This document shows, in pieces, positions 1,189 to 63,200 of a stretch of DNA of 64,000 bases. The stretch is from NCBI GenBank assembly GCA_002999035.1, contig CP027241.1:2928195-2992194 (forward strand), written 5' to 3'. Under the pieces are notes generated by a model that saw nothing but the letters and a program-made list of their open reading frames with translations, ran no database searches and was not told the origin of the DNA. Within the stretch, counting starts at the first letter, position 1, and each line of letters begins with the position of its first letter. This DNA comes from Lachnospiraceae bacterium oral taxon 500. Lineage in GTDB: Bacteria > Bacillota > Clostridia > Lachnospirales > Vallitaleaceae. The translations under genes and the position numbers were made by a program.

Positions 1189-2091
1189 TTATTTACGATG
1201 AAATATCTTACTGAAGATCGAACTCAGTCCCTTGGACTGGGGTTCCTGCCGGATATCAGCCTGCTCCCCGGCCAAAACTCTTTTGGCAATTTCCTCAATC
1301 GCCCTGGTAACCGCCGCCTTGGGGTAAATGATGGAAAACGGTTTTCTTTCAATCACCGCATCAACCAATGCCCGGTCATCCGGTAAGTGACCTAATTTCT
1401 CCAAAGAAATCTCCAAAAAGCGCATAGTCACCTTATTTAACTTTTCAAATACCTCATCGCCTTCCCGAGCACTTCGGCTTTTATTGACGATCAGCTTCAT
1501 TTTAGGCCGCTGCGCGGTAAACTGCGGACTGCTGCAAATCGATTTAATCAGCGCGTAAGCGTCTGTAATTGCTGTCGGCTCCGGTGTCGTCACGATCAGG
1601 ATTTCATTGGAAACGAAAGCAAACGCCAAAACCGCTTCATTAATACCGGCGCCGGTATCTATTATAATTATATCGGCATGTTGATCCAAAATTTCCAGTT
1701 GTTTGACTAAATATTCTATTTGTTCGGCCGTCAGGTTCATCAGTTGACCGATCCCCGACCCGCCGGATAAAAAGCGAATCCCCATCGGACCCTCTGTCAA
1801 AACGTCAAAAACCGACATTTTCTGGGTTATCAAATCCAAAATATTATACTTGGGCAAAATTCCGAAAATGACTTCCACATTGGCCAGACCAAAATCGGCA
1901 TCAAAGATAACCACTCTTTTCCCCTGCTTTTGGAACTGGACCGCCAAATTGACACTGATATTACTTTTGCCGACTCCGCCCTTGCCGCTGGTGACGGTAA
2001 TCACCCTGGCTTTTTCTTTCGGCGGCCGGGTGTTAAACTCTCCCGCCTGTGCCTGCCGGATAATATCTCTTAGCTTCGCTGCCTGATCCAT
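1189..2091 (-). CDS. flhG: FlhG (YlxH), MinD-like ATPase controlling flagellar number
   Basis: This is a 300-residue ParA/MinD-type P-loop ATPase with the deviant Walker A GKGGVGKS at 36-43, a switch region FDADFGLANVE, and IIIDTGAG at the Walker B position. FlhG stimulates the FlhF GTPase and, in Bacillus, binds FliM/FliY to shape C-ring assembly and flagellar spacing. The N-terminal segment before the P-loop (MDQAAKLRDII...) matches the short activator helix that contacts FlhF. Its ATG shares one base with the flhF stop (TAATG), indicating translational coupling. Confidence 0.95.
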   Translation of the reverse strand: MDQAAKLRDIIRQAQAGEFNTRPPKEKARVITVTSGKGGVGKSNISVNLAVQFQKQGKRVVIFDADFGLANVEVIFGILPKYNILDLITQKMSVFDVLTEGPMGIRFLSGGSGIGQLMNLTAEQIEYLVKQLEILDQHADIIIIDTGAGINEAVLAFAFVSNEILIVTTPEPTAITDAYALIKSICSSPQFTAQRPKMKLIVNKSRSAREGDEVFEKLNKVTMRFLEISLEKLGHLPDDRALVDAVIERKPFSIIYPKAAVTRAIEEIAKRVLAGEQADIRQEPQSKGLSSIFSKIFHRK

Positions 2092-3314
2092 TAAGAACTC
2101 ACCCCTCCTAATATCTGATTGGCGGTTTCATACGGATCGAGCTCCGCAATATCCTCCGGCACATTCTGGCCGGTGGTGACATAGGCTAAGGGCCTGCCGG
2201 TTGCCTGTTTCAGATTCAAAATACTGCCGTAAGCCAGCGTTTCATCCAGTTTGGTAAAAATCAGCGAAAAATCCGTAAAATCGTATGCGGTCACCGTTTT
2301 TTTCAAATCGCTGTTTTTGGTCGACAGACTTAAGACCAAATAAACCTGTTTATCTTCGACCCTCTCCAGCAGCTCTTTCAACTCCTGCAAATGTTTCGTA
2401 TCCTGATAGGAGCGCCCGGCCGTATCAATCAAAATCAGATCATAATCGGCAAATTCCTCAATGCAGCCGGCAATCTCCTCTTCCTTGTAGATAACCTTAA
2501 TCGGAATATTCAAAATATTGGCATACGTCCTGAGCTGTTCGACTGCCGCAATCCGGTAAGTATCGGCGGTAATCAGCGCCACCTTGCATTTTTTCTCCAA
2601 AGTAAAGAGCGAAGCTAATTTAGCAATGGTCGTCGTCTTACCGACCCCGGTCGAGCCGATGAAAAACACGGGTCTGGGCCGTCCGTTTTCCAGCCGAATC
2701 GGCCGGATATCGGATAATTCTTTAACTAATCTGCGATAGACCTGATTTAAGCCTTCTTCCAAACTAAAGTCCCGACCGCTCTCTAAAAGCTCGGCCACCA
2801 GTTGATTCGCCAGCCGCTCGTCAACTTCATTTTCCGTCAACTGCTCATATATGACCTGACCAATCAGCACCTGCGGCTCAGCCGCTTCGGTTGCTTCCGT
2901 CAGTTCCGGTTTTTTAACTGCTCCGGCCTGCCCCAAAGCTTTCTCCGGCTCCGCTTTAACCGGTCGAACGGCCACCGGCAAACTCCCGGCTGTGTTCAGC
3001 GGTTTTTCCGCCTTTGCGCTTTCTTCCGTTTTTTCAGCTTTTTCGGCAGCATCCAGTTCTCTTTGCTTTTGCGATAACCCGCTTAAAAAGCTTTTAAACT
3101 CCGCCAGTTCCTTATCTTCCGGTAAAACCGGCCGCTGCTCTTTATTCTCATCCAGCGCAGCCGTCACTTCCACATAGGGTCGGCGAAACCAGCGCCAAAA
3201 TCCCTTGGGCTTGACTGATTTAATCGACAAGATCAGGGCATCACTCCCCATCTCATCCTTAGCCAGAAGCATTGCCTGCCGCTCCGTTGCCGCCCGGTAT
3301 TTCATTATCTTCAT
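2091..3314 (-). CDS. flhF: FlhF, SRP-type GTPase for flagellar placement
   Basis: A 407-residue protein of three parts. The N-terminal B domain starts MKIMKYRAATERQAM. A charged Ala/Glu/Lys-rich linker covers about 60-150. The NG GTPase domain has the P-loop GSTGVGKT at 220-227, DTAGRSYQD in the middle and TKLDE near the end. FlhF recruits early flagellar components to the membrane site of assembly; its GTPase is activated by the neighbouring FlhG. It overlaps flhA by 4 bases (ATGA) and flhG by one base, as in a coupled operon. Confidence 0.95.
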   Translation of the reverse strand: MKIMKYRAATERQAMLLAKDEMGSDALILSIKSVKPKGFWRWFRRPYVEVTAALDENKEQRPVLPEDKELAEFKSFLSGLSQKQRELDAAEKAEKTEESAKAEKPLNTAGSLPVAVRPVKAEPEKALGQAGAVKKPELTEATEAAEPQVLIGQVIYEQLTENEVDERLANQLVAELLESGRDFSLEEGLNQVYRRLVKELSDIRPIRLENGRPRPVFFIGSTGVGKTTTIAKLASLFTLEKKCKVALITADTYRIAAVEQLRTYANILNIPIKVIYKEEEIAGCIEEFADYDLILIDTAGRSYQDTKHLQELKELLERVEDKQVYLVLSLSTKNSDLKKTVTAYDFTDFSLIFTKLDETLAYGSILNLKQATGRPLAYVTTGQNVPEDIAELDPYETANQILGGVSS

Positions 3315-26341: not shown

Positions 26342-26597
26342 CTTCATCCTCCTGATCCATAAATAATCTTTATGCCGTACCGTTGCTTTTGGCTCACGCC
26401 AACTAAAAAAATGAAAAACGCCAATTAAAACCGGCACAGGAAAGCCGATTTCATTTTTATTTATATTTTATTATAACTTATTTTTAATCATAATCATCAT
26501 TTTTTGTAACACAATCTTAATCATCGCATCACTCATTATAACTCAATTTTCATTTCTTTTCAACCTAATCTGTCAAATAATTTTAAGAATTTTGTCT
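26342..26597. promoter_or_regulatory. codY upstream region with SigA promoter
   Basis: An AT-rich leader of about 190 nt. On the minus strand: -35 TTGAAA (26563-26558), 17-bp spacer, -10 TATAAT (26540-26535). A second TATAAT lies at 26475-26470 without a good -35. A half-match to the CodY box (AATTTTCA) overlaps the first promoter, but the other half is absent, so autoregulation is only a possibility. Confidence 0.55.
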
Positions 26598-26738
26598 ACA
26601 GTTCAGGCAAGCAGACCATTAGAGTTGATATTCCGGCAAGCTTGCTTGCAAGGAATATCAATTCTAATGGGCTATTTGCGGAACGCATACACTGATAATT
26701 CGCTGAAAGCGAATTATCAGTGGGCTTGCCTGAACTGT
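26598..26738. repeat. Structured repeat, unit 1: three-way-junction element
   Basis: A closing stem of 15 perfect pairs, ACAGTTCAGGCAAGC (26598-26612) with GCTTGCCTGAACTGT (26724-26738), encloses two hairpins. Hairpin 1 (26616-26670) has a 19-bp stem, CCATTAGAGTTGATATTCC with its complement and one G-T wobble, topped by GCAAGC/GCTTGC. Hairpin 2 (26690-26722) has a perfect 15-bp stem, CACTGATAATTCGCT, and a GAA loop. The linker GGCTATTTGCGGAACGCA joins them. There is no coding frame of note. Confidence 0.85.
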
Positions 26739-26747
26739 ATTATAATA

Positions 26748-26925
26748 GCAGACTGTTATGCTTGATATGACAATGGAGAGCTTGCTCTCCAGGGGCATAT
26801 CAAGTATGACGGGCTATTTGCGGAACGCACACATGAGTAATTCGGCGAAACTCATTTCCCATCAAAATACAGTTATTCCCCTTTTCGCCGAATTACGAAT
26901 GGCTTGCCTGAACTGTATTATAATA
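26748..26925. repeat. Structured repeat, unit 2: divergent sequence, same architecture
   Basis: It begins at GCAGAC after the linker TATTATAATA. Hairpin 1 is CTTGATATG...CATATCAAG with an apical TGGAGAG/CTCTCCA; hairpin 2 is GTAATTCGGCGAAA...TTTCGCCGAATTAC with a roughly 30-nt loop. Hairpin sequences differ from units 1 and 3 yet remain fully paired, while GGGCTATTTGCGGAACGCA and the end GGCTTGCCTGAACTGT are unchanged. The period is 178 bp against 137 bp for the others. Confidence 0.8.
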
Positions 26926-27062
26926 GCAGACCGTTGAGGTTGATATTCCGGCAAGCTTGCTTGCAAGGAATATCAATTCTAATGGGCTATTTGCGGAACG
27001 CATGCACTGATAATTCGCTGAAAGCGAATTATCAGTGGGCTTGCCTGAACTTTATTATAATA
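26926..27062. repeat. Structured repeat, unit 3: near copy of unit 1
   Basis: A 137-bp unit differing from unit 1 at only about six positions. Most changes at the base of hairpin 1 (GTTGAGG for ATTAGAG) keep pairing through G-T wobbles. Both hairpins, the linker and the GCTTGCCTGAACT end are retained. The closing-stem left arm is supplied only by unit 1. Confidence 0.85.
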
Positions 27063-27109
27063 GCAGACCGTTGATAGTTGATATTCCGGCAAGCTTGCGC
27101 ACACCGCCT
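27063..27109. repeat. Structured repeat, unit 4: truncated at the topA stop
   Basis: GCAGACCGTTGATAGTTGATATTCC and the following GGCAAGCTTGC are present, then the unit is cut off in the loop of hairpin 1. The topA stop codon follows at once. This suggests insertion or recombination against the 3' end of topA. Confidence 0.75.
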
Positions 27110-63068: not shown

Positions 63069-63200
63069 TGCAAGAATGAAATATGAGGACGGAACGGGCA
63101 GCCGTCGCCCTTGCTGGAGATGTAGGAGTGCCACCTACCATATTTTATTCACCTACAAACTGTTAAGGGGAAGATAGCTTTAAGTTATTCTTCTCTTTTT
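63069..63200 (+). ncRNA. Candidate structured leader or small RNA upstream of rqcH
   Basis: About 130 nt from a consensus promoter to an intrinsic terminator. GAATGAAATATG (63074-63085) pairs with CATATTTTATTC (63139-63150), 12 bp with one wobble, closing a domain. Inside are GACGG/CCGTC (63088-63092, 63102-63106) or, alternatively, GGGC/GCCC (63096-63099, 63107-63110), and hairpin GTAGG/CCTAC (63122-63126, 63134-63138). A second CACCTACA at 63150-63157 could capture TGTAGGAGTG instead. No known riboswitch, SRP or 6S pattern was recognised. It may be an attenuator of rqcH or a free RNA. Confidence 0.6.
63167..63200 (+). terminator. Intrinsic terminator ahead of rqcH
   Basis: GGGGAAGATAGCTT pairs with AAGTTATTCTTCTC (wobbles and one mismatch), followed by TTTTT. 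It lies about 100 nt before the rqcH start, so rqcH needs read-through or another promoter; none was clear in 63201-63297. Confidence 0.75.

What the first reader, a model, noticed from the sequence alone, without database searches (positions are those of the whole stretch)
26598..27109. Tandem array of three-way-junction repeats with structure kept despite sequence change
Three and a half units stand between codY and topA. Units 1 and 3 (137 bp) are nearly identical. Unit 2 has different sequence in both hairpins, yet these remain fully paired (TTGATATTCC/GGAATATCAA versus CTTGATATG/CATATCAAG; CACTGATAATTCGCT versus GTAATTCGGCGAAA stems). The unpaired linker GGGCTATTTGCGGAACGCA and the closing arm GGCTTGCCTGAACTGT are unchanged. 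Constant linkers plus changed but paired stems argue for selection on a folded RNA or on hairpin DNA (as in REP or MITE mobility), not for chance. I know of no described family with this layout.
Basis: partly seen in the sequence, partly recalled or inferred. Interest (0 to 1): 0.78.

Follow-up and report, generated by a model that had tools for sequence, protein, structure and literature searches.

The report
Mobile cloverleaf-shaped DNA repeat family
The repeats between codY and topA belong to a family of about 140-letter, self-folding DNA elements found at roughly 70 places in this one bacterial genome, often just after the letters TTTG; they look like small DNA parasites moved by an enzyme not yet found.

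Summary
The array is real: three units plus a fragment at window 26599-27099. It belongs to a dispersed family: 70 sites at E up to 1 (67 at E up to 0.0023), about 80 units. Nothing convincing appears in 245 other genomes of the order or 21 of the family; three weak outside hits were unrelated on reading.
A unit is an outer stem, a long hairpin, a linker (a mini hairpin in 27 of 38 better-scoring units) and a second hairpin. Pairing survives sequence change: 34 of 55 pairs changed on both sides, 0 of 500 shuffles. Few G-U pairs and species restriction favour hairpin DNA over functional RNA.
TTTG lies at the left end in 33 of 59 ends, mirrored on the right in 2 of 59, in control windows 11 of 295. 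No target duplication was detected. One copy clearly sits inside another, two more inside apparent remnants, all at TTTG.
Best reading: a non-autonomous mobile hairpin element resembling BOX elements and REPINs, without REPIN-defining features. No intact helper was found; single-strand (HUH-like) mobilisation is inference.

The parts
26590..26594 (+). TTTTG target motif left of the array (4 bases before CAG of the arm)
   Evidence: TTTG in left flanks of 33 of 59 outer ends (profile)
26599..26612 (+). 5' outer arm (CAGTTCAGGCAAGC), present once in this array
26613..26673 (+). unit 1 hairpin H1
   Evidence: fold; covariation
26674..26688 (+). unit 1 linker ATTTGCGGAACGCA with mini hairpin 26677-26687
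26690..26722 (+). unit 1 hairpin H2
26724..26738 (+). unit 1 3' outer arm (GCTTGCCTGAACTGT)
26750..26916 (+). unit 2 (H1 - linker - H2 with long loop - 3' arm), no 5' arm
   Evidence: 81.3 bits
26928..27052 (+). unit 3 (H1 - linker - H2 - 3' arm), no 5' arm; near copy of unit 1
   Evidence: 92.3 bits
27062..27099 (+). truncated unit 4 (5' strand of H1 only)
   Evidence: BLAST match (G000:C1:2955256-2955292)

Best explanation
A species-specific, non-autonomous mobile DNA element. The unit that spreads is 5' arm - H1 - linker - H2 - 3' arm, or a composite of one 5' arm and several core-plus-3'-arm units. SHOWN by sequence: dispersal to about 70 sites; paired ends; a TTTG motif on the left only; a copy inside another copy at TTTG, and two more in apparent remnants; no detectable target duplication; no convincing relative in the genomes searched. 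INFERRED: that it is or was mobile; that it is recognised as a folded single strand (hairpins or cloverleaf) and joined 3' of TTTG by a trans-acting enzyme, most like the HUH/Y1 transposases of IS200/IS605 and REP elements, now lost from or not recognised in this genome; that arrays grow by local duplication and by movement of composites; and that the fold persists because only foldable copies are propagated, helped by template-switch repair of stems.
For: 70 sites, about 80 units. One-sided target: TTTG 33/59 left, 2/59 right mirror, 11/295 control; strongest columns -7 and -6. Nested copy L093 inside H2 of another; relatives without it (L077, L097, L150, L076) read AATTTG or AATTCG, then ACG or GCG, then AAA. 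L102 and L117 follow ATTTG in linker-like sequence of older remnants, read by eye. No TSD: best z 2.8 against 2.25-4.28 for the maxima of 15 shuffled sets, 24 sites. Arm pairing continues into the flanks when the first unit's own right end is used (108 against 78.8, p 0.0005, 31 units). Covariation. In ten hand-picked pairs of related units stem sites differ less than unpaired ones (8.3% against 20%) and doubly changed pairs exceed expectation (19 against 3.6). The codY-topA region of both same-genus genomes is syntenic and lacks the array. G-U and A-C nearly balanced.
Against: No intact Y1 transposase: two partial matches. DDE_3 absent; one IS110-type gene exists without a known link; other transposase families were not searched. 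Orientation bias expected for Y1 elements is weak: 36 against 23, my hand count (about p 0.12, hand estimate). L093 implies three host bases replaced, which IS200/IS605 insertion does not predict. The closest pair at different sites is 95% identical, so current mobility is not shown. With a cruder choice of right ends (48 ends) flank complementarity was not significant except at one position (p 0.03), and the best direct-repeat score was z 3.4 among 288 combinations. The three within-array pairs show no compensated change (missing 5' arms add one-sided changes there). Loss of pairing in weaker copies rests on model-score tiers, which is partly circular; an independent divergence measure gives rho -0.19, p 0.09.
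Confidence: 0.75

Rival explanations
1. MITE moved by a cut-and-paste (DDE) transposase that recognises the inverted outer arms; for example ends TTA-CAG...CTG-TAA with a TA duplication as in IS630/Tc1 elements.
For: Near-perfect inverted outer arms (98.4% of cells paired); TA directly outside the ends in 20 of 48 left and 24 of 48 right ends, both in 14 of 48; direct-repeat score z 3.4.
Against: TA on both sides in only 14 of 48; no TSD above shuffled sets; DDE_3 absent; TTTG on one side only; constraint reaches H1 and H2, which a TIR-only mechanism does not need.
Confidence: 0.2
2. A functional structured RNA or mRNA element (attenuator, stability or processing element) copied to many operons and kept for host use.
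For: Strong covariation; small G-U excess (226 against 181, p 0.03); 52 of 59 ends intergenic by a mechanical ORF caller; the window array lies between co-oriented genes.
Against: No convincing match in other species examined; of the 52 intergenic ends 9 are between divergent and 7 between convergent genes; few G-U pairs; deletion remnants; no excess of terminator-like sites at the window array. Transcription was not tested.
Confidence: 0.12
3. Pairing is kept mainly by a mutational process: template switching during replication copies one arm onto the other, without selection on the fold.
For: Some hairpin tips are reverse complements of those in other copies (H2: L070 versus L098/L121, L072 versus L084; H1: L122 versus common form, L103 versus L083, L137 versus L098; further 'reverse' rows there are opposite-strand duplicates); pairing extends into site-specific flanks. 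PMC8794818 (abstract and start of introduction seen) describes the process for RNA hairpins.
Against: Tips are 2-7 nt, so chance reversals are possible and were not tested; does not explain dispersal or the TTTG target. Compatible with the best explanation as a contributing process.
Confidence: 0.3

Closest known systems
BOX elements (boxA-boxBn-boxC) of Streptococcus
   Same: One 5' module, variable number of tandem core modules, one 3' module; folded; thought parasitic; repeats inserted into one another; helper uncertain (PMC3049150, passages seen)
   Different: Here every repeat carries its own 3' arm and the outer arms are an inverted repeat; TTTG one-sided target; BOX sequences were not compared directly
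REP / REPIN elements with RAYT (TnpA-REP)
   Same: Extragenic inverted repeats forming hairpins, tandem clusters, remnants, and a proposed 'clover' fold recognised IS200-like (PMC3116915, passages)
   Different: About 140 nt; no GTAG/GT[AG]G foot motif in the consensus; no intact RAYT/Y1 gene
IS200/IS605 insertion ends
   Same: Subterminal hairpins and a short conserved target flanking the left end (PMC6006769, passages); absence of TSD is recalled
   Different: No transposase; inverted outer arms; possible loss of 3 host bases at the nested site
Bacterial MITEs (RUP, Correia, Nezha, bcr1)
   Same: Small, palindromic, dispersed (RUP, Correia, Nezha in PMC3049150 passages; bcr1 in PMC2267715 passages)
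   Different: No target duplication detected; internal hairpins kept as well as the ends

Membership tests
MITE (DDE-mobilised) | terminal inverted repeats | tested here: met
   10 model pairs, 98.4% of cells paired
MITE (DDE-mobilised) | target site duplication | tested here: not met
   24 of the 70 sites, not above shuffled sets; (48 ends) best z 3.4 among 288 combinations, without a null for the maximum
MITE (DDE-mobilised) | related autonomous IS with the same ends in the genome | tested here: inconclusive
   none seen by eye around 20 solo-arm loci; DDE_3 absent; other DDE families not searched
REP/REPIN | GT[AG]G (or CGTC) motif at hairpin foot | tested here: not met
   left-end consensus TTTTGYTTACAG, by inspection
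REP/REPIN | RAYT / Y1 transposase gene in the genome | tested here: not met
   only two partial PF01797 matches, one with an internal stop
BOX | one 5' module, n tandem core modules, one 3' module | tested here: met
   layout only: the 12 tandem arrays recognised by eye among the 21 loci have one 5' arm each
BOX | sequence homology to boxA/boxB/boxC | not tested
   no BOX sequence was compared
IS200/IS605-type insertion | conserved target on left flank only, no duplication | tested here: met
IS200/IS605-type insertion | cognate TnpA | tested here: not met
IS200/IS605-type insertion | lagging-strand orientation bias | tested here: inconclusive
   36 against 23, hand count using local GC skew
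Rfam structured RNA | match to a known family at gathering score | tested here: not met
   only skipping-rope RNA elsewhere in the window
functional RNA | conservation in related species | tested here: not met
functional RNA | transcript | not testable with these tools
   no expression data held

The most novel reading that the evidence does not exclude
A new type of single-strand mobile element whose whole cloverleaf is the recognised substrate and whose exposed linker (ATTTG-CTT-AAC in older copies) is a built-in copy of its own target site (TTTG-NNN-AA), so that copies home into one another and grow nested and tandem arrays; the responsible enzyme is of an unrecognised kind or has been lost.
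Probability: 0.2. Interest if true: 0.65.

Novelty: new variant of a known kind. Interest (0 to 1): 0.45.

Why it matters
Structured interspersed repeats are common in bacteria, but for several (BOX, CGTC REPs) the mover is unclear. This family has definable ends, a one-sided target, a nested insertion with unoccupied relatives and strong stem covariation, so the target rule and the need for the fold can be tested directly. It also warns that covarying stems may mark mobile hairpin DNA rather than a functional RNA.

Tried and rejected
Outside hits: the two genome-contig hits (L065, L066), the one viral hit (L067) and the CM hits in G013, G038 and G194 were read and judged chance matches or unrelated hairpins. 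Plasmids and phages: no match. IS630-type TA duplication: considered because ends read TA-CAG...CTG-TA, not supported. Autonomous parent element: around 20 solo-arm loci I saw decayed or deleted copies or lone arms; their proteins were not scanned. Terminator function: some left flanks look like T-tails of terminators (L071, L084, L098, L147 by eye), read as target preference; not counted. G-U excess as RNA evidence: significant in best copies (p 0.006) and overall (p 0.03), but the aligning model prefers G-U and the excess is absent in weak copies. Decay with age: weak on an independent measure. Arm 12-mers in relatives: 1-20 per genome; by my hand estimate about 15 are expected by chance in 3.5 Mb with one mismatch, so the 20 in same-genus G001 (reversed control 6) are not taken as remnants. 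Organism name: not obtained; the one named-genome scan went to the repeat pattern. No structure prediction of proteins was run. Literature: eight library searches were answered; in their listings I saw no paper describing this family, but the library lacks most subscription journals.

Full report
Observation. The region 26599-27099 holds one 5' arm, three units and a truncated fourth. Unit 1 folds as an outer stem, H1, a mini hairpin in the linker, and H2. Units 2 and 3 lack the 5' arm. Rfam has no match there at gathering scores.

Family. BLASTN found 55 matches in the genome. I aligned 19 units with 5' arms. RNAalifold gave 51 pairs, 33 with double changes. With the mini hairpin added, 34 of 55 pairs have double changes, 95.4% of cells pair, and 0 of 500 shuffles reach any of the five measures; the mini hairpin itself has one such pair and 88% of cells paired. 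A covariance model found 134 matches at E up to 1, counting both strands of the palindrome, which collapse to 70 sites, three of them only at E above 0.01. Non-overlapping matches in 69 of the 70 fetched loci number 85, three being short opposite-strand duplicates, so about 80 units. Arm 12-mers with up to one mismatch number 184 against 4 for the reversed control.

Distribution. BLASTN finds none in 40 relatives. The model finds one weak match among 21 family relatives (G013) and two among 245 other order genomes (G038, G194, stricter filters); on reading, these are unrelated hairpins. An exact pattern scan of 84,980 species gave two hits without the element's context, about the number I expected by chance; the one viral hit was likewise chance. 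An exact pattern misses diverged copies. Plasmids and phages gave none. About 0.48 Mb of same-genus G001 holds no element. Between aligned blocks around codY and topA both same-genus genomes have about 150-230 nt where this genome has about 770, and lack the array.

Ends and target. Outer left flanks read TTTTGYTTACA-GTTCAGG; right flanks read CCTGAAC-TGTAAY and then lose consensus. TTTG occurs at the expected left position in 33 of 59 ends, at the mirrored right position in 2 of 59, and in 11 of 295 control windows of the same flanks. Complementarity between left and right flank continues just outside the arms when each first unit's own right end is used (108 observed, 78.8 expected, p 0.0005, 31 units; positions 2-4 outside GTTC/GAAC each p 0.04 or less); with a cruder choice of ends only one position reached p 0.03. 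Direct repeats: best z 3.4 among 288 combinations, but not above shuffled sets.

Nested copies. In L093 one element lies inside H2 of another. Relatives without it (L077, L097, L150, L076) read CAATTTG or CAATTCG, then ACG or GCG, then AAA; the occupied site reads CAATTTG-[CTTATAG..element]-AAA, so the insertion follows TTTG and three bases are missing. In L102 and L117 an element follows ATTTG in what looks, by eye, like the linker of an older remnant, and its right end is followed by AAC. The older linker is ATTTGCTTAACG, resembling the joined left and right target flanks; that it is a built-in target is inference.

Arrays. In the 12 tandem arrays that I recognised among the 21 loci only the first unit has a 5' arm. 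Second- or third-position units from L134, L074, L090 and L071 group with the first unit of L070 and single-unit L108 (98/97 support, bootstrap not settled), so composites may have moved as wholes; L127, L118 and L071 also show local duplication.

DNA or RNA. In the 27 best copies 92.2% of cells are Watson-Crick, 38 are G-U and 17 A-C (p 0.006); in middle copies 79 and 63; in weak copies 109 and 101; overall 226 and 181, p 0.03. An RNA read from one strand should favour G-U over A-C; the small excess lies in an alignment made by a model that prefers G-U. In ten hand-picked pairs of related units stems differ at 8.3% of sites and unpaired columns at 20%; pairs with both sides changed number 19 against 3.6 expected, none of the compensated ones in the three within-array pairs. 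Hairpin tips that are reverse complements of each other in different copies fit template switching, so covariation is not by itself proof of selection. An independent divergence measure shows only a weak fall in pairing with age.

Helper. PF01797 gives two partial matches; the L032 one is a broken IS200-type gene whose surroundings, by eye, do not resemble the element's ends. DDE_3 is absent; reverse transcriptases and one IS110-type gene exist without a known link. Orientation to the G-poor strand is 36 against 23 (hand count), not decisive. Of 59 ends, 52 are intergenic by a mechanical caller.

Comparison. Layout resembles BOX elements (PMC3049150, passages) and the REPIN 'clover' fold (PMC3116915, passages); target logic resembles IS200/IS605 (PMC6006769, passages). 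Most REP families carry GTAG or CGTC tags (PMC3733652, abstract), not seen here. I call it a new variant of a known kind, structured non-autonomous mobile repeats, and not a member of the REP or DDE-MITE families as defined. That it is or was mobile is well supported; how is inferred.

Noticed in passing
window 63078-63146 (+): skipping-rope RNA (RF02924), 54 bits against a gathering score of 36.7.
   Followed up: no
L033, about 1797-3073 (G000:C1 near 672 kb): ORFs that look like Cas2 and a Csn2-type protein beside a repeat-rich ORF (VLHHSKLTKLSN repeated), i.e. a probable type II CRISPR locus (names from my reading, not from a search).
   Followed up: no
L032 1391-1722: Broken IS200-type transposase: 73-aa N-terminal part ending at a stop, about 2-5 kb from repeat sites L130 and L131.
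   Followed up: partly
L130 and L131 (G000:C1:2999347 and 3002251): Two repeat copies with nearly identical 40-nt left flanks about 2.9 kb apart, suggesting a segmental duplication that included the element.
   Followed up: no
L147 1499-1537; L145; L150; L155: Remnants with both outer arms but H1 and/or H2 deleted or shortened, as expected for slippage across hairpins.
   Followed up: partly
L070/L098 versus L072/L084 and H1 tips of L122, L103, L137: Hairpin tips that are reverse complements of those in other copies, a possible template-switch footprint.
   Followed up: partly
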